From Azorinus chamasolen (taxonomy: Eukaryota > Mollusca > Bivalvia > Cardiida > Solecurtidae): a stretch of DNA of 64,000 bases. Positions 1,247-41,856 of the stretch are shown here, piece by piece. The notes beneath the pieces were generated by a model, which worked only from the letters and a program-made list of their open reading frames with translations, had not been told where the DNA came from and did not search any database. The stretch's first letter is position 1. Every line of letters starts with the position of its first letter. The position numbers and the translations under genes were made by a program. The stretch spans positions 2,931,593 to 2,995,592 of the forward strand of contig OY755242.1 of assembly GCA_963576725.1 (NCBI GenBank). Reading direction: 5' to 3'.

Positions 1247-2690
1247 TGTCTCCCCCCATATTTATATGGGGGAGACATATTGTTTTCGTGAGAGTTGTCT
1301 GTCTGTCCGTCCGTCTGTCCGTCTGTCTGTCACACTTTTTGTCCGGACGATAACTTCAATATGCCTGATGCCAGTTGATTGAAACTTCATATATGGAAAG
1401 AGCATAATGAGAGGAAGTGTCATGCACAAGGTCCATAACTCTGGCTTCACTAATATTGGAGTTATTGCCCTTTGTAAAAAAAAATCACACTTTTTTGTCC
1501 GGACGATAACTTCTATATGGCTCATGCCATTGGATTGAAACTTCATATATGGAAAGATCATGACGAGAGGAAGTGTCATGCACAAGGTCCATAACTCTGG
1601 CTTCACTAATATTGGAGTTATTGCCCTTTGTAAAAAATATCATAATTTTTTGTCCGGACAATAACTTCAATATGCCTGATGCCAGTTGATTGAAACTTCA
1701 TATATGGAAAGAGCATAATGAGAGGAAGTGTCATGCACAAGGTCCATAACTCTGGCTTCACTAATATTGGAGTTATTGCCCTTTATAAAAAATATAATTT
1801 TTTGTCCGGACAATAACTTCAATATGCCTGATGCCATTGGATTGAAACTTCATATATGGAAACATCATAACGAGAGGAAGTGTCATGCAGAAGGTACATA
1901 ACTCTGGCTTCACTAATATATGAGTTATTGCCCTTTGTAAAAAAAATCACACTTTTTTGTCCGGACGATAACTTCTATATGGCTCATGCCATTGGATTGA
2001 AACTTCATATATGGAAAGATCATAACGAGAGGAAGTGTCATGCACAAGGTCCATAACTCTGGCTTCACTAATATTGGAGTTATTGCCCTTTGTAAAAACA
2101 ATCACAATTTTTTGTCCGGATGATTACTCCTAAATAATGTGACACATGTCATTGTATTGAAACTTCATACATGGAACGATCATAATAAGAGAAAGTGTCA
2201 TGCATAAGATCCTTAACTCGAGCTTCAATAAATTTAGAGTTATTGCCCCTTGTACATTTGTTTAATTCTTTCTTGTCCGGACGATAACTCCTACATGGTT
2301 CTTGCCATCGTATTGAAACTTCATACATGGAAAGAGCATGATGAGAGAAAGTGTCATGAACAATGGCCATAATTCTGGCTTCAATACTTTTGGAGTTATT
2401 GCCCTTTGTTACATTTTTTGGCCGATCAATAACTCCTGTTCGACTGATGCTATTGGAATGACATTTTATTTTTGGAAAGAACATGATGAAAGTAAGTGTC
2501 ATGCACAAGGGCCATAAATCTGGTATCAGTATTTTTGGAGTTATTAGCTGTTATCATTTTCTTCTTGAAAAATGTAGTGTGGAAAACGCATAATGAGGGG
2601 AAGTATCATTCATCAAGAGCATAACATTTTTAGTGATTTCCCTTTACATATTGTTTTTATAAGAGGGGAGACATCCGTTTTTTGACAAAA
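1247..2690. repeat. Pearl-like element with ~150-bp tandem units
   Basis: The element opens with a perfect hairpin (TCTCCCCCCATA...TATGGGGGAGA) at 1249-1272, then a GTCTGTCCGTC microsatellite at 1296-1330. About eight tandem units of roughly 150 bp follow. Each starts near TTTTTGTCCGGACGATAAC and ends near GAGTTATTGCCCTTTGTAA, and divergence increases toward the right. It closes near 2672 with GGGGAGACAT, the complement of the head. This build (hairpin, tetranucleotide-like microsatellite, tandem core) matches bivalve pearl elements, usually grouped with non-autonomous Helitron/Helentron elements. ORFs on the - strand here are repeat translations. Confidence 0.65.
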
Positions 2691-12024: not shown

Positions 12025-12230
12025 TAAACAAGAGGGTCAGAATGGCCCTGACATCGCTCACCAAACAATCAGATATGTTTCTATTGAAATCTGACCGTCC
12101 CTGGGGCGGTGCCAATTTTGACCCCAGGGACACAATATATAACTTTTGTAGATGACCTAAATATGAGGCTATGTGCCAAATACGAAATCTGAGAACATTC
12201 CAGTTTCAAAGGAGAAGATTTTCAAAGTTT
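12025..12230. repeat. Left part of a dispersed repeat split by the Gypsy element
   Basis: The repeat begins near AAGAGGGTCAGAATGGCCCT and runs to TTTTCAAAGTTT, where the LTR starts. Its continuation resumes at 21236. The uninterrupted paralogue at 21395-21425 reads TTTTCAAAGTTTGCACTATA across the same point, so the insertion site is clear. Confidence 0.7.
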
Positions 12231-12441
12231 TGTTGTAATTACACTACAAATGCAATGCACTACAATTAAACCTACCTCTGGTTTGGATCCAGATAGGTCC
12301 TCGAGTTTTCTAGTCTTTTTGTGCTCTCTCTTCAATATGGCGTCTTTCCTTTCTCCCGCCTCTTTCCAAAGACCCCGCGGAAGTGGGGTTTCCTCCGGTC
12401 CCGCACGACCGGGTTATGGCTAAAACCCGGCCGTCACCACA
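12231..12441 (-). repeat. 3' LTR of the Gypsy element
   Basis: It is 211 bp, TG...CA ended in element orientation, and matches 21025-21235 except at two positions (T/C near 12239, A/G near 12321). In element orientation it contains CGCCATATTG, a YY1-like word, and a CAGAGGTAGGT donor-like word. A four-base GTTT precedes it at 12227-12230. Confidence 0.95.
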
Positions 12442-12574: not shown

Positions 12575-13852
12575 TCACCCCTGCAGAGGAGGCTGCCTCT
12601 GGACATACAGCCTCTCTGCATTGGCATACGTTAAAGAGAGGAGGTCCTGCCATGGTAGGCCAACGACCTCCTCCAACTCTGCAGCCACCGCTCCCAGCAG
12701 GCTTGGTGTGGACCGCCGGAATCCTGGGGGGCTGAAGTATGGAGCGTCTGTCTCCAGAAGCAATCTATGCCGGTCAATGCCCCGGATTGCTTCTTGCTGG
12801 GCCATAGGCAATTTCTTGGCCATCTGGGTTACGCTCACATACGTGTTGGGGAACGCCTCTAACCAACTCTCCAAAACCCTTGCCGTTCCGGAAAAGCAAT
12901 GGAGGTGGATCAGCCGTTCCCTTCCTACTTTCGGATGAGCTTGCAGTTGAAACATCAGGCTCAGCAAAGCCTCATCCGGCACAGAGCTGGTTCCTCTGGC
13001 GTGCAGCACGAGCACGTGCTCCTTCTTTAAGAGAAAGAGCACCCTCTGCAGCTTATAGACCTGCTCCACCCATTGGTCTGGACTTTCAGTATGGTCCAGG
13101 CCAACTTCTCCCAAGGCGCTCACTCTATCTAACTCCAGCAGGTTCCCTAGGGTCTGAAACTCCTCCTCAGAAATCAACTTCTTGGGGTGGATTCCAACCG
13201 CTACAACAACTCCCTGCTGGGCCAGCCTTTCAACAGCATCCTGGTCTGGATAGGTGTCAGGGTCGCTAAACACTCCAACCACCCTATCCACTTGGACCTC
13301 GTAGGGCTCCCGGGCAGTCTGATACTGCAGAATGGATTGAAAGTCCCACGAGTCCCGCATACCAAGGTTCCTGGCCGTCCTGTCCAAATGGCAGTGGCTA
13401 TCAAATGCCTTTGGTAGCATAGGTAGCAGAGCCTGTTCCTCCTCATCAAGTTGGTACAGCTGACGAAGATCCTCTGCTTGATGACCCTCCAGCATGGACA
13501 CCAGGAGCAGCACTACTCTCCAATGTACAAGAGCAGTGACCCTGTTGCCCGACTGCCGGAGAGACATATCGCCGATAGGCTCCCGCAGGTACTGACAAAG
13601 CTCCTGCATGGCCTCTGTGGTGGCATCATCGACCTCCCAGTCACGCATTCCCCCAGAGATGTCCAAGTAGCGAACCATATCTCTGAGAGAAGCCTTCTGG
13701 CCCATTAACCAACGGGTGACTAATTTCAGGGCACCGATTCGTCTATTGACAATGTCCTCGCCCTTAACTGCTGGCTGGAATACTGCCGGAAGATGCCGAG
13801 CAAAAGCATGTGACCTTGTCAGCTCTGCCGCACAGCCTTGCACCAAACAAGA
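12575..13852 (-). CDS. TatD-family metal-dependent nuclease ORF (ORF4) of the Gypsy element
   Basis: About 423 residues. From residue ~147 to the end it is a complete TatD-type TIM-barrel hydrolase (PF01026-like). The six expected metal ligands are in place, counting from the TTG at 13846: H151 and H153 in FDSHCHLDR, E247 in ALGEVGLDH, H282 in LVLHARG, H316 in IHLHCFSG, and D367 in LLLETDAPYF. TatD enzymes are metal-dependent DNA/RNA exonucleases. The first ~145 residues are helical-looking and unassigned. The reading frame has no ATG near its beginning. It follows the upstream basic ORF in the same frame after one TAG at 13853-13855, so it is made by readthrough, is fused in intact copies, or starts at an internal Met (residue 48). 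Intact ligands argue for selection on activity. Confidence 0.88.
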   Translation of the reverse strand, partial: SCLVQGCAAELTRSHAFARHLPAVFQPAVKGEDIVNRRIGALKLVTRWLMGQKASLRDMVRYLDISGGMRDWEVDDATTEAMQELCQYLREPIGDMSLRQSGNRVTALVHWRVVLLLVSMLEGHQAEDLRQLYQLDEEEQALLPMLPKAFDSHCHLDRTARNLGMRDSWDFQSILQYQTAREPYEVQVDRVVGVFSDPDTYPDQDAVERLAQQGVVVAVGIHPKKLISEEEFQTLGNLLELDRVSALGEVGLDHTESPDQWVEQVYKLQRVLFLLKKEHVLVLHARGTSSVPDEALLSLMFQLQAHPKVGRERLIHLHCFSGTARVLESWLEAFPNTYVSVTQMAKKLPMAQQEAIRGIDRHRLLLETDAPYFSPPGFRRSTPSLLGAVAAELEEVVGLPWQDLLSLTYANAERLYVQRQPPLQG

Positions 13853-14794
13853 CTACTTCCGCCTCTTGGCATGGTGATCCCTGGTGGAAGCCTCCCTTGT
13901 CTGAGTACTGGGAATGTCATGCGAACTACCGGTCGCTGACCAAGGCTTGACCGGACTCACAGGCTTGGTGGCCGTAGATGATCTTGGAGGCGTGGAGGGC
14001 GCTAAGAGTCGGGCCTCTTCGTCCGACGACACTTGCCCCACCTCCATCTCCTCTTCACCTTTCGTTAGGCTAAGGGAAGGGCTGGATGCCCCCTTCCCCA
14101 TATCCACCTTCACTCTGGGGAGATTTGGGTTTGAGACCAATCTATAGTCTTTGCTTGGTTCCCTAGCCTCCCCCGATTGGGGTTTTTTCTTTGGTGGCTC
14201 CCCTAGCGGAAATATCGAGCTAGAGATCCACCTCCTGCTGTGGTACTGGAGGACATCCAACTCCTTGGCCAACGTCCTTAGCCAGGCAACTTTGTTCTGG
14301 GCCCGGGCGACACCGGCCTGCCCCAGCAAAACAGCCATGCTGGAGTTCTTCTCTCCAGCAGCGCAAACTTTCTCAGACAGTGTCCTTGGATGCATAAGTT
14401 TGCCCTTTTTGGTCAACCTTCTTGCTCCATTGAGAATGTCTCCACACCCTCCTGAGTCCCTTCGCTGATCACCCGAAGGGTTGTTCCTCCTGTAGTGAGG
14501 CGACAAAGACCTCTCCCTTCTTCTTTCCGGAGAATGTCGAGATCCTCGCCCTCTATTTCCGGACGAAGCCTTGCCTCGGTTTCTCCTCTGATCAACAGGA
14601 GAACTCCTTCGCTCCCTTCCCTTTTCCTCAAACCTAGCAGAACTCCGGTCCATTGAGGATCCCGGAGACCGCCTCTGAGAGTTGGTTGGGTTCTCTCCCC
14701 GCTCGCGTGCCGGGGGCCTCCGTCCACCCTTGGCCTCGTCTGATGGGGGCCGTTTACCTCCTCCTTGATCAGGAGGCTTATCTGAGTCTGACAT
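13853..14794 (-). CDS. Basic RS/RG-rich ORF (ORF3) of the Gypsy element
   Basis: I place the start at the ATG at 14794 (MSDSDKPP) because CTTTGTCTTTTCCAG, a strong 3' splice site, directly precedes it. The open frame itself extends to 14848. The ~313-residue product has a disordered N-terminal half rich in Arg, Ser, Gly and Pro, with repeated RR/RS/RG words. A compact helical segment follows at roughly 150-210 of the product, then a Ser/Pro/Glu-rich tail ending in KRRK. No known domain is recognised. The basic half suggests RNA binding. After its TAG stop the same frame continues into the TatD ORF, so the two may form one long protein in functional copies. It overlaps the end of the integrase ORF when read from 14848. 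Confidence 0.7.
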   Translation of the reverse strand: MSDSDKPPDQGGGKRPPSDEAKGGRRPPARERGENPTNSQRRSPGSSMDRSSARFEEKGRERRSSPVDQRRNRGKASSGNRGRGSRHSPERRRERSLSPHYRRNNPSGDQRRDSGGCGDILNGARRLTKKGKLMHPRTLSEKVCAAGEKNSSMAVLLGQAGVARAQNKVAWLRTLAKELDVLQYHSRRWISSSIFPLGEPPKKKPQSGEAREPSKDYRLVSNPNLPRVKVDMGKGASSPSLSLTKGEEEMEVGQVSSDEEARLLAPSTPPRSSTATKPVSPVKPWSATGSSHDIPSTQTREASTRDHHAKRRK

Positions 14795-14815
14795 CTGGAA
14801 AAGACAAAGAGAACC
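14795..14815 (-). promoter_or_regulatory. Candidate 3' splice site for the ORF3/TatD message
   Basis: In element orientation GGTTCTCTTTGTCTTTTCCAG is immediately followed by the ORF3 ATG. The pyrimidine tract and CAG fit a spliceosomal acceptor. By analogy with the env message of retroviruses and errantiviruses, a spliced subgenomic RNA would deliver the downstream ORFs. A possible donor, GAG|GTAGGT, lies in the 5' LTR near 21069. This is inference without transcript data. Confidence 0.5.
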
Positions 14816-14828: not shown

Positions 14829-16973
14829 TTAACTCTTGTCCTGATCAAACAGAGTTCTGACTCTGTTTTTACAGTCTGGGCACCTATACTTCTGGATATC
14901 TACCGCATCTGTAGGGGTTATATCTACGCATGCACCATGGTACCATTCAGTACAATGATCACACTGTATCATGAAACGCCCCTGCCAAGGTTGCTGACAG
15001 AGGCAATAGACTCTATCATCACCTTGAACGGTAGTTTCTGTTTTGTTCGGACTGCTTTGCCAATGCTTAATCCACTGTGGGAGTGTGTCATCATGACAGA
15101 GCTTTACCCTGTCATGGTTAACCACAAACACAGCATTCCTCAACTTGACTCTAAAAAGGGAATCTGACAATTTGGATATAATGACAGCTGGACCCTTCCA
15201 AGGGGAGCACAGCTTTTTACATTTACCCTTGAGGACCGCAGTGTCCAGCAAGTACACCACATCACCTACCTGATAGTTCCTAATAAGCACGCGCAGGTCA
15301 TAATTTCGCTTCATTCTTTCAGAAGTTGTTTTCATGACTCGGCGTGCAGCCTCATGGGCTTGTTGCATTTTTGCTGCAAGTCTACCAGGATAACTCTCTG
15401 GAGCTGCTGGCGTCTGGCTTGAAATCGGAAACATTAAGTCAGCAGGCATATTCACCTCCCTCCCTAACATTAGCATATTGGCAGTGTGTCCGGTCATTCG
15501 ATTTACGGAGGACCGGAGGGCACCGGCGATCTGCTGTAAGTACAAATCCCAATGATTCTGCGACTTGCCAATAAAACAGCGAACAGCGTCCATCAGAGTA
15601 CTATTGTACCTTTCAACCTGGCCATTGGCTGAGGGTCTATATGGTGTTGTGCGGGCCTTGTGGATATGCAGAACCTTACAAAGTTCCATAAAGAGCTTAG
15701 AGTCAAAATTGCGCCCCTGGTCTGAAAATACCTGAAATGGCATTCCGAACCTGGAGAAGAACTGGTCAACCGCTGCTTGGGCAGTTTCCTCTGCTGTCTG
15801 GTTTGGCAGAGGAATACATTCCACCCACTTGGTAAACTGGTCCACCATCATAAGCACATATTCATTACCTCTAGTAGACCTAGGTAAGGGTCCAAGAAAG
15901 TCGATATGTACTCTTTCCATGGGTGCCCCAGCCTGATATTCGATCATTGGACGTTTACCATGCCTGGCCGATTTCTTGTTCTGATTACAAGAAGAACAGC
16001 CCAACACATGGTTAGTAATATCCGCAGACATCCCATACCAGGCATACTTTTCTTTCATCCTTTCCTTGGTTCTCTGTACACCCTGATGCCCGACTGAAGG
16101 AAGGTTATGGTTCAAATATAAAGCCTTTGCCCTGAGTACCCTTGGTAAAACCAAGCGCTTATCCCCGGATTTTGGCTCATCCATATACAGAACCCCTTCA
16201 ATCAGTGACAAACGATTCCTGTTCAACCAGTAGAATTTGGCTGCTGGGCTCGTTCTAAAGAGACTACCCTCACTGGGCTCCTCTTTAGATTCTAACCAGG
16301 ATAAAACTGGTGACAGGTCAACATCGCTATGTTGCGATGATACCAGGTCTTCAATAACAAATCCCCAGCTTTTTGCCACAGGATTTGAATTATTCTCTGC
16401 AGGTTTCGTAGACTCTGCCGTCATGGTTGGATCAACGACGGTTTCCCCAGACGATGAGGGCTGAATGTCACGCCTTACTTTGGTGGCCTCCTGCTTCGCC
16501 GCCCGTCGTGTTACCACATTCACACTTACCACCTCATCTCCTGGTTCAGAGTCCTGCTCCCATGGTATGTCTTCTAGAATTTCTTCTAGCAAACTAACCT
16601 CTTGTTGAGCTACCGGCTCCCCCGGATCCCACACCTTCTGGACCTGTGGGTCCGACTCAGTTGTCCTGAAGATCGAGTCCTCTGCGAGTTGACAACCGGT
16701 AGTTGCACCTTCCGGCTTGCCACCGTCACAAGACTGGTATGATTCCATTCCGTCTAATTCCCCGTAGATTTCTTGCAGATCCGCCTTAACTTCCAGGGCC
16801 GTCTTACATTCCAGACCAGCTGGAATCCTAGACTTGGTCGTCAATGGCACTGCGTCATCTACCTCTTCCAGGAAGGGTGCCCACTGCATGTGGGCTCGTT
16901 CACAATATTTACACCCGCCGCATGGCAACTCCTTTAATCGCACACCCTCTTGGTAAGCAAGACACTTGTCACT
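14829..16973 (-). CDS. Gypsy integrase with C-terminal PHD finger
   Basis: The frame is the continuation of RT-RNase H after one TAA. The first ATG is at 16943 (704 residues from there). From the N-terminus: a short Cys cluster (CGGCKYC); an acidic linker; an HHCC zinc module with H279, H286, C316 and C319; and the integrase core with D348 (VHIDFLGP), D408 (FSDQGRNF) and E444 (NGQVERYN), which gives the DD35E spacing. A GPY/F-like segment around KGPAVIIS follows. The last ~60 residues (from about 645) carry a C4HC3 PHD finger: YCLC, then IQCDHC, EWYHGAC and YRCPDC. The tryptophan before YH is the aromatic-cage position of H3K4me3-reading PHD fingers of the PHF2/PHF8 kind. Integrase would insert the cDNA, and the finger may guide target choice. 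Confidence 0.93.
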   Translation of the reverse strand, partial: SDKCLAYQEGVRLKELPCGGCKYCERAHMQWAPFLEEVDDAVPLTTKSRIPAGLECKTALEVKADLQEIYGELDGMESYQSCDGGKPEGATTGCQLAEDSIFRTTESDPQVQKVWDPGEPVAQQEVSLLEEILEDIPWEQDSEPGDEVVSVNVVTRRAAKQEATKVRRDIQPSSSGETVVDPTMTAESTKPAENNSNPVAKSWGFVIEDLVSSQHSDVDLSPVLSWLESKEEPSEGSLFRTSPAAKFYWLNRNRLSLIEGVLYMDEPKSGDKRLVLPRVLRAKALYLNHNLPSVGHQGVQRTKERMKEKYAWYGMSADITNHVLGCSSCNQNKKSARHGKRPMIEYQAGAPMERVHIDFLGPLPRSTRGNEYVLMMVDQFTKWVECIPLPNQTAEETAQAAVDQFFSRFGMPFQVFSDQGRNFDSKLFMELCKVLHIHKARTTPYRPSANGQVERYNSTLMDAVRCFIGKSQNHWDLYLQQIAGALRSSVNRMTGHTANMLMLGREVNMPADLMFPISSQTPAAPESYPGRLAAKMQQAHEAARRVMKTTSERMKRNYDLRVLIRNYQVGDVVYLLDTAVLKGKCKKLCSPWKGPAVIISKLSDSLFRVKLRNAVFVVNHDRVKLCHDDTLPQWIKHWQSSPNKTETTVQGDDRVYCLCQQPWQGRFMIQCDHCTEWYHGACVDITPTDAVDIQKYRCPDCKNRVRTLFDQDKS

Positions 16974-19370
16974 TTAGAGTAACCGGGACAGTGCATCTGC
17001 ATTACCATGGTCACGACCCGCACGATACTTAAGTATCATGTTATATTGAGACAGCTCTTCCAACCATCTCGCCAGTTGCCCCTGCGGCTCACGGAACTTT
17101 GTCAACCATCTCAAGCTCGAGTGGTCGGTACGTACAACAAATGGTCTACCTAGCAAATAGTGACGGTACTGTCTAGTAAACCGCACTACCGCTAGCAACT
17201 CTTTACGTGTAACACAATACCTGCGTTGCTCCTTAGTCAAAGCATAACTTCCGTATGCAATGACTCTTTCCTCCCCATCCTGTACCTGGTACAAGACTGC
17301 CCCGATAGCAAAGTCGGAAGCATCTGTATCCAACACAAAGGGATCTGTTGCATTAGGAAACGCAAGTACTGGCGGGTTTACCAATGCCTCCTTCAAGGTG
17401 CGGAAAGCATTGACCTGATCTTCAGTCCAGACAAAATTATTCTTGCCTGTAACCGCATAAAGAGGTGTGGCAATTCTAGAGAAGTCTTTAATAAAACCTC
17501 TGTGATAGTTCGCCAGCCCCATAAATCTCTCTACCTGCTTCGAATCAGTCGGTTCGGACCAATCCCTCACCACCTGAATATCATCATCTGTCATCTTGAC
17601 AAAGTCCTGGCCTACCTTCCTCCCTAGGAACTCAACCTCCTTTTGAAACAAGGAGCATTTCCTAGGTTTTAGCTTTAACCCATAATGACGAAATCGTTGT
17701 AGGGCTTCTCTCAAGTTAAGCAGGTGCTCTGCGAAACTTCTACCCAGCACTATGATATCGTCCAAGAAGGCCAGGACTGTTTTCCAAGTCAGTCCCCTCA
17801 GGATCAAGTTCATGGCTCTAGCAAATGTGGCTGGGGCTCCGCATAAGCCGAAACCCATCCGCACATGCTCGTACAAACCATATCTTGTAATAAAGGCCGT
17901 CTTTTTACGGTCTTCCTCCTTGACCTTTAACTGCCAATAAGCTGAATTGGCGTCTAACTTGGAAAACCAGACACTGCCTGCTACAGTGTCTAAACAGTCA
18001 TCTATCAATGGTAGTGGGTACACATCCTTGACCGTCTTTTCATTTAAAGCACGATAATCAATGCACCATCTAACACTACCATCCCTCTTCTTAATCAACA
18101 CAGGAGCTGAAGCCCAATCAGAGACTGATTCTTGAATGACTCCAGCCTCCAACATTTTCTTCAAATGAGCTTCCTCCTCACCAGCAAAGCACGCCGGAGT
18201 TCTACGCATCCGCTGCTTTACTGGTTTCGCGTCCCCTGTTTCGATGACATGCTCCATTGCATTGAAGCTGCCCAAGTCGAAGTCATCTTTGGCAAAAACA
18301 TCTTGGAATTCAATCAGCAATTGCGCTAATTGGATCCTTTCGTCCTCCTGCAATTGACTGGAGGCTTCTGCATAAAGTTGCCGCAGATGCTCTGGTATAC
18401 CTTCTTGGTGTTGATCTTCAACTGTTTCGGTTTTTGACACTTCCCTTGCCCAAATAGACTCGGGTTCTTCGGCGTCCTCCAAAACAGTCTCTATTGGAAA
18501 CGCAAGTCCAATCTCCTTACCCTTAGTGACTAACCGGTATCTATCACTAGGGTTTATGAGACAGACGTATGGATCCGACCCTTCTTTTCTTAGCACCTTT
18601 GGCATCCAGAACTGAGAAAGACTCCTGGGCTCTATGACATAGTCAGGCAATGGCTGACTAAGACTACACCTAACTTTAGCAACCGAATGAGGGGGAATAA
18701 CCCGTCTTTTAGAAACAGTAACCCTAGCCACTGAGGGGTTAGACCCTCCAGACCCGATGTTTAGTAGGAGCTCCATGCCATCAAATAGTAGGACCCCCCT
18801 ACCCATATCCAGAACAGCCTTCTTATCCCTGAGAATATCAAACCCTAAGAGCATCTGCTGTTCAATTGGAGCTACATATACTTCCTCTCGGTACCACTGA
18901 TGCCCTATTTTTAGCTTCAGTGGCCCTGCCACAAACCCGCACATGGACATTTCCCTGCCTGCAGCCATCAACTTTACCTTCCTGAGAACAGGGGGCTTAT
19001 TGTTTAATGACTGGTAGACTTTATCAGAAATAATAGTCACTTGGGCAGCTGTATCAACTACTGCTGTTACGGGTCTATTACCCACTTGGACTCCAATTGT
19101 TAGCTGAGAGTCTGACGAGACTTGGCATACAACCACAGGTCTGTCCTCCACCGGTGACTGTTCATTCCCCTGCACCTTTTTGTCATTTGGACAAGAAGGT
19201 CCAGTCTCAGGGAATTTAGCGGCCATTCGAGACCTCTTGGGCAAGGTCTCTAATTTCTTTCGGGACGACGATCGGCCTGACTCCCCGTCCCCCTGCCTTT
19301 TGGCTGCTGACCCTTCAAAGTGGGACAGTCCCTTTTGAAATGTCCCTTCTGGCCACACTCATAACAAGCT
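16974..19370 (-). CDS. Gypsy pol: aspartic protease, reverse transcriptase, RNase H
   Basis: 794 residues from the ATG at 19358, in the -1 frame relative to gag with ~109 bp of overlap, so a -1 frameshift is the likely route of expression. Protease: VVDTAAQVTIIS with D102 as the catalytic Asp. RT: WCIDYRALNEKT around 431-442, YPLPLID at 447, SKLDANSAYWQL near 466, and the catalytic box FLDDII at 531-536 (F where many Gypsy RTs have Y). RNase H: LDTDASDFAIGAVL with D677, RKELLAVV, and TDHSSLRWL. The frame ends at a TAA at 16974-16976 directly after the ADALSRLL tail and continues open into integrase. I find no readthrough signal of known type next to it. Confidence 0.93.
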
Positions 19371-20674
19371 CCCTTAACCTGGTGAGTAGATAGACGTTGC
19401 TGGCTTTGAAAGGTCTTAACTAATCTTTCTTCAAGATCGCGCAGCGCCTTCTTGAAATCCTCCCCCTCAGAGAAGGAAGAAGTCTTTTCCCCCTGTACGG
19501 CATAGACCTTTTCCTCTTCGTTTTGACGTCGGGAAGCTTTCGGCGTCTTGCCATACATCGCCGAGTGCACCTGCTGGTACTTCCTGACGAGCTGTATAGC
19601 TTCTTGTACAGTACCGGGTTCTTGCATACAGACATGGTGGCCTGCCTCCCGGTCTACTAACCCCTGGCAGAATCTGCTAATAATCTGCCTGTTGACAAAA
19701 TCTTCAGGCAGCTTCTTAAAAGCTCTGCCCCCGAGTGTGAGCAATCTGTCTGCCCATTCGTCTAGGGTTTCAACTTGGGTCTGCACTGACTGCTGGAACC
19801 GCACTTGTGCAGCTTCCGCCAGTTCATGCTGCCCATATCTAGCTTCTAGCTTATCCATTAATGTGGAATAGCTAAGCGATCCATCTCGCTCGCACAGCAA
19901 CACATGGTACTCGGCGGCTTTGCCAGTCAAGCACCACGTGAGCACATTCAGGCATTCGCCTTCTGTCCACTCCGCTACATTGGCGAATCTGGTGAACTTC
20001 AGACGAAATGCTTCCCAGCTACTCTTCCCGTCAAAACTTAAATTCTTTGGCAAGGACTTAATAATGTCCTGCTGCCGACTAAAGCTTGACATTGATCGAC
20101 CACCATACGACTGGTCAGACCGTTCGGTAGAGGGTTCCCTGAATCGCAATTTCCTCTTTGGCGTTGATGTCCAAATCGGATCTGCAACTTTTTTCGTCGT
20201 AAAATCCGCTGGCGACTTTAGCACCAGCGGTGGACGAGGGTCCTTCACCGCAGTGGTAATTGGGCTGGTGATATCCCGCTTTTGTTCAAGAACACGTGAA
20301 GCCGCATGTACTACCTTGAGTACCTCAGGCCAACACGAAAAATCTTTTTCATCATGGATATTTCGTCCACCGGTGACGGGCTCATCCTCCCCAGACGAAT
20401 CACCTGACTCATAGGGCCCTCTCAGGGTGCGGTTCGACTCAAAATCAATCATCGAGACAACCTCCTGAGAGAGTTTTCTTCTAGTCAGGGCCTCAAGAAT
20501 TTCCAGGGTTATATTCCCTGAGTTCTCCCTGACAGCAATAATTGTCCTAGCAAGCTTTGATTTGATGCCAGGAATCCGCTGCAATTCCAACTCTGTAGCA
20601 AAATTAATTGCTACAGAGCGGGTTCGTATTGGTAGCTCAGCCGCCTCTACATTGTTTTCACCTCCCTCGGCCAT
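19250..20674 (-). CDS. Gypsy Gag polyprotein
   Basis: 474 residues from the ATG at 20674. The N-terminal region (about 25-75) has a helix-hairpin-helix look: LQRIPGIKSKLARTIIAVRE followed by GNITLEILEALTRR, which resembles ComEA-type DNA-binding hairpins and is unusual for Gag. The middle (about 200-380) has the helical Gag capsid signature of Gypsy elements (WEAFRLKFTRFANVAEW, then a WADRLLTLGGRAF segment). Near the C-terminus is a CCHC zinc knuckle, CYECGQKGHFKRDC, followed by a basic tail. It would assemble the virus-like particle and bind the RNA. The frame ends at a TAG at 19250, after pol has opened in the -1 frame. Confidence 0.9.
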   Translation of the reverse strand: MAEGGENNVEAAELPIRTRSVAINFATELELQRIPGIKSKLARTIIAVRENSGNITLEILEALTRRKLSQEVVSMIDFESNRTLRGPYESGDSSGEDEPVTGGRNIHDEKDFSCWPEVLKVVHAASRVLEQKRDITSPITTAVKDPRPPLVLKSPADFTTKKVADPIWTSTPKRKLRFREPSTERSDQSYGGRSMSSFSRQQDIIKSLPKNLSFDGKSSWEAFRLKFTRFANVAEWTEGECLNVLTWCLTGKAAEYHVLLCERDGSLSYSTLMDKLEARYGQHELAEAAQVRFQQSVQTQVETLDEWADRLLTLGGRAFKKLPEDFVNRQIISRFCQGLVDREAGHHVCMQEPGTVQEAIQLVRKYQQVHSAMYGKTPKASRRQNEEEKVYAVQGEKTSSFSEGEDFKKALRDLEERLVKTFQSQQRLSTHQVKGACYECGQKGHFKRDCPTLKGQQPKGRGTGSQADRRPERN

Positions 20675-21024: not shown

Positions 21025-21235
21025 TGTTGTAACTACACTACAAATGCAATGCACTACAATTAAACCTACCTCTGGTTTGGATCCAGATAGGTCCTCGAGT
21101 TTTCTGGTCTTTTTGTGCTCTCTCTTCAATATGGCGTCTTTCCTTTCTCCCGCCTCTTTCCAAAGACCCCGCGGAAGTGGGGTTTCCTCCGGTCCCGCAC
21201 GACCGGGTTATGGCTAAAACCCGGCCGTCACCACA
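21025..21235 (-). repeat. 5' LTR of the Gypsy element
   Basis: 211 bp, TG...CA in element orientation, and the partner of 12231-12441. It should drive transcription of the element. No TATA box is evident. The word CAGAGGTAGGT near 21064-21074 is a candidate splice donor for the ORF3 message. GTTT follows at 21236-21239, completing the target duplication. Confidence 0.95.
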
Positions 21236-21440
21236 GTTTGCACTATAAAATTGTTTCTATTGAAAACTGACCAACCCTGGGGTGGGGCCTATTTTGACAA
21301 CATGGACATAATTTATATAACTTTTGTAGAGGATCGGAAAATGGTGCTATGAGTCAAATATGAAAGCTGAGAACCCTGTAGATTCAGAAAAGAAGATTTT
21401 CAAAGTTTGCACTATACGTTTGTATAGACAAGAGGGCCAT
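21236..21440. repeat. Right part of the dispersed repeat split by the Gypsy element
   Basis: It begins with the GTTT target duplication and continues GCACTATAAAATTG, then two related ~150-bp segments. The second, ending in TTTTCAAAGTTTGCACTATA near 21410, is an intact version of the Gypsy target site. Confidence 0.65.
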
Positions 21441-26775: not shown

Positions 26776-27924
26776 GTCAATTTGTACACAGACAGTTTGC
26801 ATGCTTATATTTTGGAAGACTTAGCACAAAACTATTGCATCTACATTCTGTGATATTTATAAGCATTGTGCATTATCTTTTTTTTAAGTAGATCTCAAGT
26901 CAGATCTATTCCATAAGCAAACAGAGCAGACCCTGAACAGACAGCTTCTACAGGAGTCGTCTGATCTGGGTGTTCTCTGTTTACAAAGGTGGTAGAAGGC
27001 ATTTGTATAAAGGGTTAATGACTGTTCAGACTTTGTTTACAATTGATACACTCGCTGCAAATGTAAACTATCCTAGTTACTTTTCACAGTGGTATGTCAT
27101 TTGAAAACAGTGACTCTTTGCATTGTCAGTAACTTGTATGCAAACTTAGTCATCTGCTGCACAGCAGAAAGTATATATTTCCTTGTATTAAAATATATGG
27201 GCAGAGTAACAGTTTGGATTCTGTCGAAACATTTAACCCTTTCCTTCGTATAAACACATTTTCACACATCAGTAAGCAGAGTAGACCCTGATCAGATGGC
27301 TCCTATAGGAGCTGATCAGGGTCTACACTGTTTGCTAAAGGAATTGGATAGCTCTGTTGCTTTACTTTCTAAAATGGCTACAATGTTCCACCTACAATAT
27401 TTCATTATAACTACTTTGTCCATGAATATTCAGTAGGTAATTAAATTTTGGAATAAACATAGAACAGGGAAAAGATTAGACATCATTACATAATATCAAT
27501 TAATGATCGGTGCATTCATTTGGGTTTGCAATGCATTATGGGTATCATGAAGTATTGACATATTGTGGGTTTTATGGTATCTAACACAAAAGTGTTAAAA
27601 CCTAATAGTTTTTTTTTGCAGTAGTTCTGTTAATCTTATGTCTAGACTCGGTACAAGAAATAAGAAAAATCAGTAACAAGTCTGAATACGAAAGGACATT
27701 ATTTTTTGTGTTTGATTTGCGGGTGGTTTTTACATAATTTATTGTGTGCTGAATTGGATTTGTGGAGTGAAAAACAAACAGTTGTGTCTGGGTCATTTTA
27801 GGAAATGTTCCTGATAAATGAACACACATATGACAAGAAAAATAGATTGAATTGATATTACCTGTTCACTGCCGCAAAATGTAGTCTGCATAAAATTCCG
27901 TTTCCTACAATTTTCATTTTTTTT
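26776..27924. other. Intronic DNA with further MITE copies
   Basis: It includes a MITE at 27233-27478 (TTAACCCTTTCCTTCGTATA at the left, ACAGGGAAAAGATTAG at the right) and an isolated core near 26920-26990. No coding sequence is supported. The ORF on the - strand at 27602-27829 is simple AT-rich sequence. Confidence 0.5.
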
Positions 27925-28850
27925 AAAACCGAGTCTGCAATTTTCTCTTTTTGCATTTCTACTTTTGCTTTCGAGGGATCACCCATTTTCAGAATATATG
28001 TACTTCACAACAGCAGGTGTTAAGTGCTTGTGTGGCGGTCGTAAAAAGTCGCCCCGTACTTCATTCTCAGTGTTGTTATATTTTCTGGTCCTTCGGGATC
28101 ATTAGTTTTCATGTTATTAGTTTTGAAAATTGAATACTGCTTAAGCCGGTGCTAGGGGGCGTGAGTAGTGTTGCACTTTTAAATACTACTCATGAACAGA
28201 CTCAATAAAACCGAGTCTGCAATTTTCTCTTTTTGCATTTCTACTTTTGCTTTCGAGGGATCACCCATTTTCAGAATATATGTACTTCACAACAGCAGGT
28301 GTTAAGTGCTTGTGTGGCGGTCGTAAAAAGTCGCCCCGTACTTCATTCTCAGTGTTGTTATATTTTCTGGTCCTTCGGGATCATTAGTTTTCATGTTATT
28401 AGTTTTGAAAATTGAATACTGCTTAAGCCGGTGCTAGGGGGCGTGAGTAGTGTTGCACTTTTAAATACTACTCATGAACAGACTCAATAAAACCGAGTCT
28501 GCAATTTTCTCTTTTTGCATTTCTACTTTTGCTTTCGAGGGATCACCCATTTTCAGAATATATGTACTTCACAACAGCAGGTGTTAAGTGCTTGTGTGGC
28601 GGTCGTAAAAAGTCGCCCCGTACTTCATTCTCAGTGTTGTTATATTTTCTGGTCCTTCGGGATCATTAGTTTTCATGTTATTAGTTTTGAAAATTGAATA
28701 CTGCTTAAGCCGGTGCTAGGGGGCGTGAGTAGTGTTGCACTTTTAAATACTACTCATGAACAGACTCAATAAAACCGAGTCTGCAATTTTCTCTTTTTGC
28801 ATTTCTACTTTTGCTTTCGAGGGATCACCCATTTTCAGAATATATTTATT
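27925..28850 (+). repeat. 282-bp tandem repeat, about 3.3 copies
   Basis: Units start near AAAACCGAGTCTGCAATTTT at 27927, 28209, 28491 and 28773, and the last is cut at CATTTTCAGAATATAT. The three full units look identical by eye, so the array is recent. Each carries the same 60-codon ORF (MHFYFCFRGITHFQN...), which is a repeat translation rather than a gene. A diverged inverted copy lies at 26277-26485. Confidence 0.92.
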
Positions 28851-31579: not shown

Positions 31580-32242
31580 ATGAAGCAACCAACGGCGCCG
31601 TTATATCCTGATTTACCAGTAGAGGATGGACAAAATTATAGATTACAAAAAATATCAGAGATTGAAAGAATATTAATTAATGAAAGAGATACAAGAAAAT
31701 CATTACGAAAAAAATATAAACGAGGAATAAATATTACTGAAGGGGTTGATACCACATTAATATCAACTAGTATTATTTTATCAGGAATTGGAGTAGCAGT
31801 TCCTATTCTGTTACCATTACAAATAGTAGCTGTAGCATGTGGAGGAATTGGTGTATGTGTTAAAATAATAATAAGAAAATTAATGACAAAAGCACAAAAA
31901 CATTGTAATGTTAAAATGATAGCAGAAAGTAAATTAAATAGTATTAGAGATATTATTTCTAAATCTCTTCAAGATGGAGAAATAAGCCCTGAAGAATTTA
32001 AATTAGTTTTAACTGAAATGGAAAAATATTCTAAACTTAAAGAAGAAATCAGATCAATAAAAAAATCAGACCTAGGGAAATCAGGTTCAGGAATAACTGA
32101 GGATGAAAAAAAAATTGATCGAGAAGGTAAAAGAAGATATGTTAAACAGTTTAAAAACAGCATAATTTATACAATTAATAATAATAATTATGTTACTAAT
32201 AATTATAGATATGAAAACCCACCACCAATTTATTCCGAATAA
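31580..32242 (+). CDS. Polinton protein with two hydrophobic segments and a C-terminal PPIY
   Basis: 220 residues. A basic, charged N-terminal helix (to ~60) is followed by a hydrophobic hairpin (about 60-105: LISTSIILSGIGVAVPILLP and IVAVACGGIGVCVKIII), a long charged helix, and a flexible tail ending NPPPIYSE. The tail holds a PPxY motif of the kind that recruits NEDD4-family ligases in virus budding. That is a functional suggestion from the motif only. The architecture is like a conserved but unassigned Polinton membrane protein. The start is supported by the CCTTTAAAAATG context, and the next gene follows after 2 bp. Confidence 0.75.
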   Translation: MKQPTAPLYPDLPVEDGQNYRLQKISEIERILINERDTRKSLRKKYKRGINITEGVDTTLISTSIILSGIGVAVPILLPLQIVAVACGGIGVCVKIIIRKLMTKAQKHCNVKMIAESKLNSIRDIISKSLQDGEISPEEFKLVLTEMEKYSKLKEEIRSIKKSDLGKSGSGITEDEKKIDREGKRRYVKQFKNSIIYTINNNNYVTNNYRYENPPPIYSE

Positions 32243-32244
32243 AA

Positions 32245-33264
32245 ATGGCTGAAGGCGGATTTGTTGATTATAATGAACCAGATTATCATGAAGACTTTGA
32301 AGATGATGTTTATAATGATGATAATGATATGTTTGCAGATGATGAATTTAACAGAACCATACAAAACCAATCCGCTCATATCGAAGATATTAATGATGTA
32401 GATACAAGAACACAATTAATAGTGGAACAGAAACAATCAATAGTTAAAAGATATTACGAGATGATAAAAGAAAAATATGGATTAGACCCGATTCGTATAG
32501 ATATTTCAAACTTTGAACTTGGCCCCGATAATAAAACATTATTTTTAAAGTTTGGAGAGAGAGAAATTCAAATCACATCCAAAAGAGGAGGTTTTATTGC
32601 TTTGAATACTTTAGCAAGTAGAATTGGTCATGGTGGAACTGATGCAATTAGAGATTTATTAAATTTACCAAATTATAACAGTACACAGCAACTATCTACC
32701 AAAGCTGTTGCAGCTTTACAAAATACAAGATATGAAATTAATAATGCAGGACAAGAAATACCCCTAGAAAATATAACTTCAGAACAAGATATTCAAAATT
32801 TATTAACAACAACATATAGATCAGAAACTGCTTTGAAAGAAGTAGTTGAAGAAATAGAAACTGCACCTAAAGAAGTACAAACAGATATAACAAAAAGAGA
32901 AGTGGATGGTATTCTTAAAGCAATGGCAACAACAAAAGAAGAGATTGCAAATCAATTAGCAAAACTGAATGAAACAAATAAACATATAGCAAGAGAAAAA
33001 GAAAAATTAGAACAGGCTAAAGAAGATAATAATGAATTTCAAATAGAAAGGATAAGTAATCGAATAAGAGAATTGGAAGGTGAGAGAAGTGCTAGATTAG
33101 AAGCAATTAATATTAATAAAGAAAAAATACGTAGTCAAGTATTTAGAATAAAAGAAACCATCAATAAAATATTGAGAGAAGACACGACATTAGCCGAAAG
33201 AATAAAAACTTTATTCAGGGAACAAGGAATTACAATTGTTAGTGTTTTAACCGCTTTTGGATGA
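32245..33264 (+). CDS. Polinton coiled-coil protein, N-terminal part of a likely two-part protein
   Basis: 339 residues with an acidic N-terminus (EDFEDDVYNDDNDMFADDEF), a small globular segment around 95-150, and a long coiled coil at about 195-325. It ends at a TGA that overlaps the ATG of the next ORF (ATGA at 33261-33264), which is in the -1 frame. The junction falls inside what reads as a continuous hydrophobic stretch (SVLTAFG, then MIIGLIVE), so the two ORFs probably formed one protein before a single-base loss, unless translation is coupled. Function unknown, possibly a virion-associated membrane protein. Confidence 0.72.
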   Translation: MAEGGFVDYNEPDYHEDFEDDVYNDDNDMFADDEFNRTIQNQSAHIEDINDVDTRTQLIVEQKQSIVKRYYEMIKEKYGLDPIRIDISNFELGPDNKTLFLKFGEREIQITSKRGGFIALNTLASRIGHGGTDAIRDLLNLPNYNSTQQLSTKAVAALQNTRYEINNAGQEIPLENITSEQDIQNLLTTTYRSETALKEVVEEIETAPKEVQTDITKREVDGILKAMATTKEEIANQLAKLNETNKHIAREKEKLEQAKEDNNEFQIERISNRIRELEGERSARLEAININKEKIRSQVFRIKETINKILREDTTLAERIKTLFREQGITIVSVLTAFG

Positions 33265-33728
33265 TTATTGGTCTTATTGTTGAAACCGTTATACCCGGTG
33301 GAGGAGGAGGATCTATAACACCAAAACCTCCACCAAAAGGTGATGGTGTGAAAGATTGGATAAAAAAACAATTAGATAATATTGGTAAATTATTAGCTAA
33401 ATTAGCTGGTAAAGCAGCAGCGGCATTACCAGGTATAATAGGGGCTATCGTATCGTGGTTATTATCCGCAACAGGTAAAGTTGTTAATTGGCTCGCTAAT
33501 AATCTATGGGTTTTATTAGTTTTAGTTATCGGATTATTATTTACGGCGGCGAAAGAGTATCTTAACTATAAAAAAAATAAAAACGTAAGACCTACCGCTA
33601 TACTTCCTACTATTATTGCTGTTTTATTATCTACATGTTCAATATTTTTGGAAGTTGATGATTTAGAAACATGTTCCGCTTTAGCCTCTAGCTTTGCCCC
33701 AATATTTTTAATATATGAATTAATTTGA
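33261..33728 (+). CDS. Polinton membrane protein, C-terminal part of the same locus
   Basis: 155 residues. A first hydrophobic segment is followed by a Gly run and Pro/Lys linker (PGGGGGSITPKPPPKGDG), then an amphipathic segment rich in Ala/Leu (LAKLAGKAAAALPGIIGAI) and two further hydrophobic segments at about 75-95 and 110-130. This looks like a membrane-active region. The 3' end overlaps by ~160 bp the leftward 472-residue gene, whose start lies at the far side. The last ~50 codons may therefore not belong to the original protein. Confidence 0.65.
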   Translation: MIIGLIVETVIPGGGGGSITPKPPPKGDGVKDWIKKQLDNIGKLLAKLAGKAAAALPGIIGAIVSWLLSATGKVVNWLANNLWVLLVLVIGLLFTAAKEYLNYKKNKNVRPTAILPTIIAVLLSTCSIFLEVDDLETCSALASSFAPIFLIYELI

Positions 33729-34984
33729 GCTGGTTGCGAGCGGAGGGAGCTTACAGCAGTCGACCGTTTAGTCGTTGTTCCTTTCAAATCTACATTTTGT
33801 CTCGGTGGAATAGGTTTAATATTAACGTCATTATTTAAACCGAGTTCTTGTTGGTCCGTTGCAACAACGATTTCATTATTATAATCTTGAATTGTTCCTA
33901 TTCGTAATTCCATATTACTCGGAGACATATACAAGTCTATTCCATATACAAAATCAACTTTACTTTTAGCATATTTTAATGTGTTTTGATATCTCGTAAT
34001 TTGACTCGGTAAATCTAGGGGGCTATTGATAGCATCCTCAACATTTGCTAAGAATTGTTTTTGAGCGTCAAAAGCAGTTCCTGTTCCAAGTATGTTCGTT
34101 CTCGTTTGAGATTGAGAACCGAGGATAGCCCAACAATAGGTTCTTATAGACTCGTTTATACGTTGAACACCCGCTTGTGTAAAACCTTTTGATGTATCAA
34201 GAATAAAAGTAGTCCAAGCATCTTTAACACCATCATCTTGTTGAAGATAATCTATGTGAACTTTCTTAGGAGGGTCATAATGACATGATGTAACTCCACA
34301 ATGTCTATCCCCCGGTACTTCGGCTCCGAATGTCATCTTAGTTAAATCAAGAACAGCCACTTTATTATCAGTAGTATGTTTACTAGAATTATCATGCCTA
34401 AAATCTGTTCTTGTCCAGGCTACATGACCGCTAGTATATACATCCCCGAGACCATCACCATTTGGATATAACTTTTGACGCCAGTCTGCGCTAGGATCTA
34501 CATTAAATTCTTTACATATACGTTCATACGCTTCACGGTCATAACTATTGTTAAAAGCATTCCAGCTTTCGTCTTGTGGTAGAGCTATACCTAATTCAAA
34601 GAGTATCCGTCTTGTTTGATAATAAACATGAAAATTGAATAAAGAAGAAATCAACCAATTTAAACTCCCTTTGGCCGAATCTTTATTTAATAAATGATCT
34701 TCATAACTTACACCACAACCCGTAGTAGCGCACCATATTGTAAAGTTAAGTTGATTTTGATAGAATAAAAACCAGTCTGTGTTCCATCGTTGTACTATAA
34801 CATCTGATGCTACGTGCGGTAATTTGTATTTTTTAAATAAATCTAGGAAATTTGCATTGAAACTTTTTCCACCTGTTGTAATAACGATGGATTGTTTCGT
34901 GAGGGTAATAATCTTTTTATTGAACACACCCCCATGGGTATATTGTGCTTCATTATTGTACTTGAAGGGATTTTGGATTGACAT
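33566..34984 (-). CDS. Polinton leftward protein with C-terminal membrane anchor
   Basis: 472 residues starting MSIQNPFKYN. A large globular region (1-390), rich in aromatic residues and with several cysteines (CATTGCG, DRHCGVTSC), is followed by a low-complexity linker and a C-terminal hydrophobic segment (TAIIVGSIAVGLTFLFFL). This is a single-pass, C-tail anchored architecture. It is one of two genes transcribed against the capsid block, and it shares its start region with the divergent minor-capsid gene, only 32 bp apart, so a bidirectional promoter is likely at 34985-35016. No characterised family is recognised. A role at the virion surface is possible. Confidence 0.75.
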   Translation of the reverse strand: MSIQNPFKYNNEAQYTHGGVFNKKIITLTKQSIVITTGGKSFNANFLDLFKKYKLPHVASDVIVQRWNTDWFLFYQNQLNFTIWCATTGCGVSYEDHLLNKDSAKGSLNWLISSLFNFHVYYQTRRILFELGIALPQDESWNAFNNSYDREAYERICKEFNVDPSADWRQKLYPNGDGLGDVYTSGHVAWTRTDFRHDNSSKHTTDNKVAVLDLTKMTFGAEVPGDRHCGVTSCHYDPPKKVHIDYLQQDDGVKDAWTTFILDTSKGFTQAGVQRINESIRTYCWAILGSQSQTRTNILGTGTAFDAQKQFLANVEDAINSPLDLPSQITRYQNTLKYAKSKVDFVYGIDLYMSPSNMELRIGTIQDYNNEIVVATDQQELGLNNDVNIKPIPPRQNVDLKGTTTKRSTAVSSLRSQPAQINSYIKNIGAKLEAKAEHVSKSSTSKNIEHVDNKTAIIVGSIAVGLTFLFFL

Positions 34985-35016
34985 TTTAAAACATTAAAAA
35001 AAGCAAACTAAAAAAA

Positions 35017-35661
35017 ATGTATCATACAATTTCAAATATTGATAAAACTATTAACTTACAACAATATATTGATAATAGAAATGGAGATAAATATATTGGA
35101 TTGAAAAGTATTACGTACGGTGTAGGTTGGTATAATATTGTTAATGAATATGTACTAAAGGTGGGCGAGAGACCTATTCAAATTCCAGATGGTTATTATA
35201 GTTTTCAACAATTATCGGATTTTTTAAAAACTTATAATATTACGTTAACGGTTAACGAAACTAACGGAATAGCGTCGTTAATTACTACTCAAGATTTGAG
35301 ATTGAGTAAAAATTTGAACTATATGTTAGGATTTGATAAACCTAGATTTAACCCTAATGAAATCTACATTGGTGAGAGAAGTATAGATTTTGCTATCTAT
35401 AAATCATTGTATCTTTATTTGGAACAAGTTAGTACTTCTCATAATTATCTTGATGGTATGCCGAGTACATTGTTAGCGGTTATTCCAGTTGAGAATAAAG
35501 AATTTGGTGAGATAACGACGATGAGACTGGAGAATCCTGAATACAAACGGTTAATTAATGGCTGTATAACTGAATTAAAATTAGAAATAAGGGACGAGAA
35601 TAATAAAAAAATAAATAATCATCTACCAGTTAATTGTGTTTTAGAGTTAAAAACTCTCTAA
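35017..35661 (+). CDS. Minor capsid (penton-like) protein of the Polinton
   Basis: 214 residues, close to the usual size of the single-jelly-roll penton proteins of Polintons and virophages. It is predicted mostly beta-stranded, with IPDGYYSFQQLSDFLKTY in the first half and a conserved-looking end ELKLEIRDENNKKINNHLPV followed by CVLELKTL. Its position just upstream of the fibre-like gene and major capsid also fits. It would form the vertices of an icosahedral capsid. The assignment is by family resemblance and context. No break is visible. Confidence 0.8.
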   Translation: MYHTISNIDKTINLQQYIDNRNGDKYIGLKSITYGVGWYNIVNEYVLKVGERPIQIPDGYYSFQQLSDFLKTYNITLTVNETNGIASLITTQDLRLSKNLNYMLGFDKPRFNPNEIYIGERSIDFAIYKSLYLYLEQVSTSHNYLDGMPSTLLAVIPVENKEFGEITTMRLENPEYKRLINGCITELKLEIRDENNKKINNHLPVNCVLELKTL

Positions 35662-35665
35662 TAAA

Positions 35666-36283: not shown

Positions 36284-36298
36284 AAAAAACCCTTAAAA

Positions 36299-37564: not shown

Positions 37565-37588
37565 AGGAATTTTAATTCCGTCTAAAAA

Positions 37589-38227: not shown

Positions 38228-38267
38228 ACTCGAACAAGAAGAGATGATTGAAATTTATACTTATAAA

Positions 38268-38603: not shown

Positions 38604-38638
38604 AAATATTAATTTTTATCACTTTGAGTCCCTTAAAA

Positions 38639-38887: not shown

Positions 38888-38960
38888 GTGACCGAGATTT
38901 TTATTTTTTAAAAAAATAGTTCTTTGAGCGGGTGGAGTGAATGAAATTCAACCCTTAAAA

Positions 38961-39030
38961 ATGTCGATTGATTTTAACGTTTTAGTAAATGATATTGAGA
39001 ACGGATCAACCTACTGGCTATTGGTTAGTT
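38961..39030 (+). pseudogene. Truncated third paralogue fused to an ATPase 3' fragment
   Basis: CCCTTAAAAATG starts a third small reading frame, MSIDFNVLVN. From 38991 it is replaced by 39 bp identical to the ATPase gene end at 38173-38211. This is a recombination scar. Confidence 0.7.
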
Positions 39031-39672: not shown

Positions 39673-39675
39673 AAA

Positions 39676-41854: not shown

Positions 41855-41856
41855 AA

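What the first reader, a model, noticed from the sequence alone, without database searches (positions are those of the whole stretch)
12575..14794. TatD-type nuclease encoded by a Gypsy retrotransposon
The last ORF of this LTR element has a complete TatD metal site (H151, H153, E247, H282, H316, D367) between integrase and the 3' LTR, a position where some elements carry env. It is not an inserted host gene with introns: it is LTR-bounded, co-oriented and in frame with the preceding basic ORF. TatD enzymes degrade DNA or RNA ends, and the vertebrate TATDN2 branch has been linked to RNA-DNA hybrids. A nuclease acting on hybrids or cDNA ends could help reverse transcription, remove competing DNA, or counter host defence. 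The retroelement function is inference.
Basis: partly seen in the sequence, partly recalled or inferred. Interest (0 to 1): 0.92.

Follow-up and report, generated by a model that had tools for sequence, protein, structure and literature searches.

The report
Gypsy retrotransposons carrying a TatD nuclease
A family of virus-like jumping genes in this animal genome carries, in many copies and under selection, its own version of a DNA/RNA-cutting enzyme (TatD) in the slot where retroviruses keep their envelope gene, an arrangement I could not find described in the open papers I searched.

Summary
On the minus strand, a young Ty3/Gypsy element (LTRs differ at 2 of 211 sites; 4-bp target duplication) carries gag, protease-RT-RNaseH-integrase with a PHD finger, then a basic/zinc-finger/TatD ORF before the 3' LTR, with all six TatD metal ligands. 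In this copy TAG 13853-13855 splits that ORF and TAA 16974-16976 splits pol; 7 of 9 other copies of the subfamily keep a 773-774 aa open TatD frame. It is not a one-off: in the same 1.72-Gb genome 31 of 33 TatD loci read have Gypsy integrase directly upstream, and 54 of 63 related integrase loci have TatD downstream. Between subfamily lineages dN/dS is about 0.1-0.2. The 43 element TatDs sampled group together beside TATDN2, apart from bacterial TatD; the host keeps a separate TATDN2. A starfish gene model has the same arrangement. Splice-acceptor-like sequence precedes the TatD ATG in 7 of 13 families, suggesting an env-like spliced mRNA. Against essentiality: five copies of one subfamily share a 2.3-kb TatD deletion and still spread. 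Most likely a trans-acting accessory nuclease on RNA or RNA-DNA hybrids; the substrate is inferred. New variant of a known kind.

The parts
21025..21235 (-). 5' LTR (211 nt, TG...CA); AAAC target duplication just outside at 21236-21239
19250..20674 (-). gag ORF, 474 aa: helix-hairpin-helix motif and CCHC zinc knuckle over cut-off; PNMA and gag-capsid matches below cut-off
16974..19358 (-). pol part 1: aspartic protease, reverse transcriptase, RNase H; ends at TAA 16974-16976
14829..16943 (-). pol part 2, same frame as part 1: integrase (H2C2, rve) with C-terminal PHD finger (about 14871-15005)
   Evidence: four other A copies have pol in a 1509-aa frame
14795..14811 (-). splice-acceptor-like CTCTTTGTCTTTTCCAG directly before the ATG (14792-14794) of the TatD ORF
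   Evidence: inferred, no RNA data
13853..14794 (-). N-terminal half of the TatD protein: basic, arginine/serine-rich, with a conserved GQ..A motif region; ends at TAG 13853-13855 in this copy
13793..13849 (-). C-x4-C...H-x4-H zinc-finger-like motif followed by LP
   Evidence: motif matched in 57 of 82 rows; many of the rest begin later in the protein
12575..13846 (-). TatD ORF: conserved middle region (fold unknown) and TatD nuclease domain (about 12605-13405) with H151 H153 E247 H282 H316 D367
12231..12441 (-). 3' LTR; begins 133 nt after the TatD stop codon; purine-rich AAAGTGGGGGGGAG just upstream; AAAC duplication at 12227-12230

Best explanation
The thing is an accessory gene of a Ty3/Gypsy LTR-retrotransposon lineage whose integrase ends in a PHD finger. 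It encodes one protein of about 740 aa: a basic N-terminal region, a CCHH zinc finger, a conserved middle region and a TatD-type metal-dependent nuclease, kept under selection and inherited with integrase. (The confidence below is for these two sentences.) It was probably acquired once, at most twice, from a TATDN2-like source. I think it is made from a spliced subgenomic mRNA, as env is in retroviruses, and works in trans on RNA or RNA-DNA hybrids of the element's own replication or of host surveillance (about 0.45). Shown: anatomy, position, copy number, co-inheritance, purifying selection, conserved ligands. Inferred: splicing, catalytic activity, substrate, step served.
For: Domains and ligands. 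Multi-copy: 107 matches to this TatD, 99 of 378 candidates scored. Integrase directly upstream in 31 of 33 TatD loci read; TatD downstream of 54 of 63 integrase loci. Ten subfamily-A copies (window and nine others) have ten different 3' flanks, each with the LTR 133 nt after the TatD stop. 5' LTRs found in 7 of 7 A copies and 1 of 1 B copy tried; exact 4-bp duplication in 5 of these 7, in the window and in the B copy; 5 of the 7 LTR pairs are identical. Six ligands intact in 25 of 26 ORFs of this genome and in 68 of the 75 rows that span them, of 82 rows. dN/dS 0.10-0.20 in five pairs between A lineages (11 synonymous: 4 nonsynonymous for window-L095, binomial p=6e-5); A versus B 0.08-0.105 against 0.095-0.103 for integrase, dS saturated. 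43 element TatDs in one group, 100/95 support, next to 4 TATDN2 rows and apart from 34 rows taken as bacterial. TatD and integrase identities go together, Mantel r=0.82, p=1e-4, ten elements. Splice-acceptor-like motif within 18 nt of the TatD ATG in 7 of 13 families against 61 of 1189 other ATGs, Fisher p=2e-6. Starfish gene model with integrase, PHD and TatD in one protein (P0233).
Against: Five subfamily-E copies with a shared 2.3-kb TatD deletion, pol frames of 1363-1505 aa and 96-99% identity lie at different places, so TatD is not needed in cis. Seven of 75 rows have lost ligands, and one A copy with identical LTRs (L101) has Asp for His151. The within-A pairs share copies and are not independent; the closest pairs (2-4 changes in TatD) gave dN/dS 0.3-1.0, and integrase pairs within B gave 2:8 and 0:3 synonymous:nonsynonymous. 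Six of 13 families fail the acceptor test, and its rule was written after four cases had been seen. No structure could be predicted. No RNA, protein or enzyme data. TATDN1 and TATDN3 are missing from the tree.
Confidence: 0.85

Rival explanations
1. The TatD protein mainly counters host defence (for example degrades small RNAs or other silencing RNA), rather than serving reverse transcription or integration itself.
For: A trans-acting product not needed in cis fits this. Accessory domains of other retrotransposons have been proposed as silencing suppressors (PMC6338049, first of four parts of the text read). A basic region plus zinc finger would suit RNA binding (inference).
Against: No direct evidence. 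The same data fit a replication helper equally well.
Confidence: 0.3
2. The ORF is an RNA-handling or export factor of the CERV kind (env-position, spliced mRNA), and the TatD domain is used mainly for binding.
For: Cer1 of C. elegans has an env-position ORF made from a spliced mRNA and needed for genomic-RNA export (PMC10309623, abstract and passages). Position and acceptor-like site are similar in kind. Relatives P0241/P0242 keep a recognisable TatD domain but lost several ligands.
Against: The six ligands are kept in 68 of 75 rows and 25 of 26 genome ORFs, which is hard to explain without catalysis.
Confidence: 0.12
3. TatD is a passenger kept only by recent spread, with no function.
For: TatD-deleted subfamily-E derivatives spread; dN/dS of the closest pairs is uninformative or near 1.
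Against: dN/dS 0.10-0.20 between A lineages, long open frames in 7 of 9 A and 9 of 11 B copies (739 aa or more); ligands kept across phyla.
Confidence: 0.08
4. Single chance capture: a host or bacterial TatD gene that happened to land in one element.
For: Only that the window copy is broken by a TAG.
Against: Several subfamilies and two integrase types carry TatD in the same place; identities go together; one group in the tree; the host has a separate TATDN2 exon, 60% identical to scorpion TATDN2 while the window TatD is 37% identical to it.
Confidence: 0.01

Closest known systems
Ty3/Gypsy (Metaviridae) LTR retrotransposons
   Same: LTRs, gag with CCHC knuckle, PR-RT-RH-IN order, purine tract before the 3' LTR, and a candidate primer-binding site TGGTGGCAGCGGTT after the LTR that A and B share (no tRNA was matched)
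   Different: Extra TatD ORF between integrase and 3' LTR; PHD finger at the integrase C-terminus; helix-hairpin-helix motif in gag
TatD family / TATDN2
   Same: TatD domain with all six ligands; next to TATDN2 in the tree
   Different: Multi-copy, uninterrupted, LTR-bounded, with its own basic N-terminus and zinc finger; host TATDN2 exists separately
Cer1 CERV and retroviral env (env-position ORFs from spliced mRNA)
   Same: Position between integrase and 3' LTR; acceptor-like site before the ATG
   Different: Encodes a nuclease domain, the only Pfam hit; similarity to CERV or env sequences was not tested directly
LTR retrotransposons with accessory DnaQ-like 3'-5' exonuclease domains
   Same: A nuclease as accessory domain (named as well known in PMC6338049)
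   Different: DnaQ versus TatD family; separate ORF here, not part of the polyprotein

Membership tests
Ty3/Gypsy LTR retrotransposon | Near-identical LTRs with TG...CA ends and target-site duplication | tested here: met
   2 of 211 differences, AAAC/AAAC; 7 of 9 copies tested (8 A with the window, 1 B) have exact 4-bp duplications
Ty3/Gypsy LTR retrotransposon | pol order protease-RT-RNase H-integrase | tested here: met
   Pfam order; RT tree placement not run
TatD nuclease family | TatD domain above curated cut-off | tested here: met
   128.9 bits against cut-off 27
TatD nuclease family | Six metal ligands H-x-H, E, H, H, D | tested here: met
TatD nuclease family | Metal-dependent nuclease activity | not testable with these tools
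   needs recombinant protein
TATDN2 orthologue | Falls inside the TATDN2 group or is the host gene | tested here: not met
   Element TatDs form their own group beside four TATDN2 rows; the host has another, TATDN2-like exon
Env-bearing Gypsy element (errantivirus type) | ORF after integrase encodes a membrane fusion protein | tested here: not met
   Only TatD found by Pfam; transmembrane prediction not run
Env-like expression by splicing | Splice acceptor before the ORF and donor near the 5' end | tested here: inconclusive
   Acceptor-like site in 7 of 13 families; donor-like GTAGGT/GTAAGT at LTR positions 164 (A) and 175 (B) is weak, as 23 sites scoring 7 or more lie in 7.86 kb of interior

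The most novel reading that the evidence does not exclude
An ancient capture of a TATDN2-like nuclease, before echinoderms and molluscs parted, created a lineage of Gypsy elements that express their own trans-acting nuclease from an env-like spliced mRNA; TatD-less derivatives now parasitise the copies that make it; and many invertebrate genes labelled TATDN2 or TatD are members of this element family, not the host gene.
Probability: 0.4. Interest if true: 0.9.

Novelty: new variant of a known kind. Interest (0 to 1): 0.77.

Why it matters
Retroelements get by on a small toolkit. A nuclease other than RNase H and integrase, kept under selection in many subfamilies yet not needed in cis, points to an unknown step in retrotransposition or in the conflict with the host. 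The natural TatD-deleted subfamily beside intact relatives makes the question of trans-action directly testable. It also warns that TATDN2-like gene counts in molluscs and echinoderms may in part be counts of retroelements; TATDN2 itself is of current interest for R-loops and germ-cell genome stability (PMC12709183, abstract and introduction read).

Tried and rejected
One-off capture, host gene with introns, bacterial contamination: rejected on copy number, integrase linkage, tree and the separate host TATDN2 exon. Stop-codon read-through at the TAG: considered and rejected, because 7 of 9 other copies of the subfamily have no stop there. Searches that led nowhere: viral contigs (6 loci) and genome contigs (best 80 of 567 kept) gave TatD matches of at most 33% identity, none from the element family; twelve of the genome-contig loci served as outgroup rows. 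Matching contig lengths between TatD and integrase hits gave one usable pair (21604 bp, P0254 and P0174, 14 members each), an inference. The structure job failed and the tool was then off, so the N-terminal and middle regions have no fold; Pfam finds nothing there.

Papers: seven searches paired TatD or TATDN2 with transposon words; no title or abstract start among the listed papers reports TatD in a retrotransposon (of one search's 6,016 only 15 were listed). Three more were on other terms. Apart from the five papers opened I saw listings only, and the library holds open-licence papers only.

Rows dropped: six fragment rows and five were left out; L102 and L103 (broken frames) were left out; the trees used 39, then 43, element rows of the more than 80 available; L127 was left out because my pattern found no H-x-H start of the domain. 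The 22 database rows labelled bacterial are mostly unnamed metagenome proteins that I took as such. Three integrase loci without TatD (C7:51586417, C2:90221792, C11:85639711; partial, with stops) were not read. One search ended in a script error and was repeated.

Full report
WHAT IS THERE. The element lies on the minus strand between LTRs at 21025-21235 and 12231-12441. The LTRs are 211 nt, begin TG and end CA, and differ at 2 sites; AAAC flanks both ends. Along the element: gag (HHH motif and CCHC over cut-off, PNMA and gag-capsid matches below it), protease-RT-RNase H, integrase with a PHD finger, a basic ORF, and the TatD ORF. The 3' LTR begins 133 nt after its stop codon.

THE WINDOW COPY IS BROKEN TWICE. 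TAG at 13853-13855 separates the basic ORF from the TatD part, and TAA at 16974-16976 separates RNase H from integrase, each between parts that share a frame. Four other subfamily-A copies have pol in one 1509-aa frame, and 7 of 9 others (L095-L101) have the basic and TatD parts in one 773-774 aa frame, 738-739 aa from the first ATG; L102 and L103 are broken. Database relatives P0001 and P0002 (54% identity over 99% of the query) are likewise fused. So the protein is one chain: basic arginine/serine-rich N-terminus with a conserved motif region, a CCHH zinc finger, a conserved middle region and TatD.

NOT A ONE-OFF. The window's genome (G000, 1.72 Gb, unnamed) gave 107 matches to this TatD with 99 of 378 candidates scored, and 150 matches to PF01026, all over the cut-off, with 150 of 315 candidates scored. 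I read 33 TatD loci: the window, L095-L121 and L123-L127. Integrase lies directly upstream in 31. L116 has RT upstream but no integrase, although another copy of its subfamily has it (L122); for L127 too little upstream sequence was fetched. Two integrase types are involved: PHD-bearing, and one in which no PHD was found (L123, L124). Conversely, of 63 integrase loci scored with the window's integrase (3506 first-look candidates), 54 have a TatD match downstream on the same strand within 6 kb, 50 of them at 720-1152 nt. Of the nine others one has a frameshifted TatD, five have lost it and three were not read.

YOUNG, INDEPENDENT INSERTIONS. Ten A copies have ten different 3' flanks. Of seven A copies whose 5' LTR was fetched, five have identical LTR pairs, one has one difference and one differs in length by one base; five have an exact 4-bp duplication, two match at 3 of 4 bases. 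The one B copy tested has an exact one.

SELECTION. Between A lineages five pairs show 8-11 synonymous against 3-6 nonsynonymous changes in the TatD ORF (dN/dS 0.10-0.20; binomial p 6e-5 to 0.003 for the four tested; the pairs share copies). Four closer pairs (2-4 changes) gave 0.3-1.0. A versus B: 0.08-0.105, dS saturated; integrase in the same pairs 0.095-0.103. Integrase within A gave 0.04 and 0.21, and within B 0:3 and 2:8 synonymous:nonsynonymous. Ligands are intact in 25 of 26 ORFs (L101 has Asp at 151) and in 68 of the 75 rows that span them, of 82 rows.

ORIGIN. In a tree of 81 rows the 43 element TatDs form one group (ultrafast bootstrap 100, SH-aLRT 95) next to four TATDN2 rows and apart from 34 rows taken as bacterial. 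The PHD-type rows alone have 93/91; the two others sit on a long branch (1.84), so one or two captures remain possible. TATDN1 and TATDN3 were not available. The host has its own TATDN2-like gene: a 73-aa exon, 60% identical to scorpion TATDN2, against 37% to the window TatD; the other exons were not found in the 8.5 kb fetched. TatD and integrase identities go together (Mantel r 0.82, p 1e-4; Spearman 0.64; ten elements, one of them the contig-length pair), and the groups win+L104 and win+L104+L115+L117 are supported in both trees; the deeper integrase branches are unresolved.

OTHER SPECIES. A gene model of the starfish Acanthaster planci (P0233) holds integrase, PHD, zinc finger and TatD in that order in one protein. 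TatDs of this kind also occur under names from sea urchins, an acorn worm, a brachiopod and several bivalves; for these the linkage to integrase was not seen. A likely shared 21604-bp contig links P0254 and P0174, species unnamed. Mercenaria proteins called TATDN2 or TatD-like (P0004, P0007) are 48% and 43% identical to the window TatD, against 31% for tick TATDN2. The giant-squid genome paper lists a TATDN2 gene among non-Hox genes, some transposon-derived by name, inside the Hox cluster (PMC6962438, figure-legend passage); whether that is an element copy was not tested.

EXPRESSION. The ATG of the TatD ORF directly follows TTTTCCAG (A), TTGTTGCAG (B), TTTTTTCAG (G) or TTTATTAG (I). With a fixed rule (YAG after at least 10 of 14 pyrimidines, within 18 nt) 7 of 13 families, one locus each, pass against 61 of 1189 other ATGs (p 2e-6; 3e-4 to 2e-9 for the other settings). 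The rule was written after four cases had been seen. Donor candidates in the LTRs of A and B are weak. Retroviral env, and CERV of Cer1, are made from spliced mRNAs (PMC10309623, abstract and passages).

THE DELETION SUBFAMILY. Five loci of the E kind run from just after integrase to the element's 3' end with positions 809 and 3068 of L117 side by side, so that about 2.26 kb, nearly all of the TatD ORF, is missing. The five are 96-99% alike over about 626 nt. Their pol frames are 1363, 1415 and three times 1505 aa, one of the last with a stop inside the match. TatD is thus not needed in cis: either supplied in trans or dispensable.

MECHANISM. E. [quoted passage not shown] Given the conserved ligands and the place beside TATDN2, I hold RNA or RNA-DNA hybrids to be the likeliest substrate (about 0.45), with help to replication or integration and counter-defence about equally likely. 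No call tests this.

NOVELTY. Accessory domains (chromodomain, DnaQ-like exonuclease) are known in LTR retrotransposons (PMC6338049, first of four parts read). The seven paper searches named under Tried and rejected listed no TatD case. Hence a new variant of a known kind.

Noticed in passing
window 31580-46579: Maverick/Polinton-like block: A32-type packaging ATPase (37589-38227, E 1.4e-13), major-capsid match below cut-off (36299-37564), and a 1053-aa ORF (43418-46579, minus) that looks like a protein-primed DNA polymerase to my eye (no Pfam polymerase hit).
   Followed up: partly
window 1336-2560 and 27924-28848: Tandem arrays with units of about 155 nt (8 copies) and 282 nt (at least 3 near-identical copies), the latter with inverted copies near 26270.
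   Followed up: no
L123, L124 (G000 C7:16.1 Mb, C12:9.7 Mb): A second Gypsy type, no PHD finger found, carries a shorter TatD ORF (477-487 aa frame) with a different zinc-finger-like start; dozens of PF01026 matches have frames of 474-487 aa, their kinship unchecked.
   Followed up: partly
G000 C12:9706597 and C12:9716625: Two TatD matches with 487-aa frames about 10.0 kb apart on one strand, perhaps a tandem element pair.
   Followed up: no
P0293 (database protein): TatD together with a CCHC zinc knuckle in one 800-aa protein, suggesting another domain arrangement.
   Followed up: no
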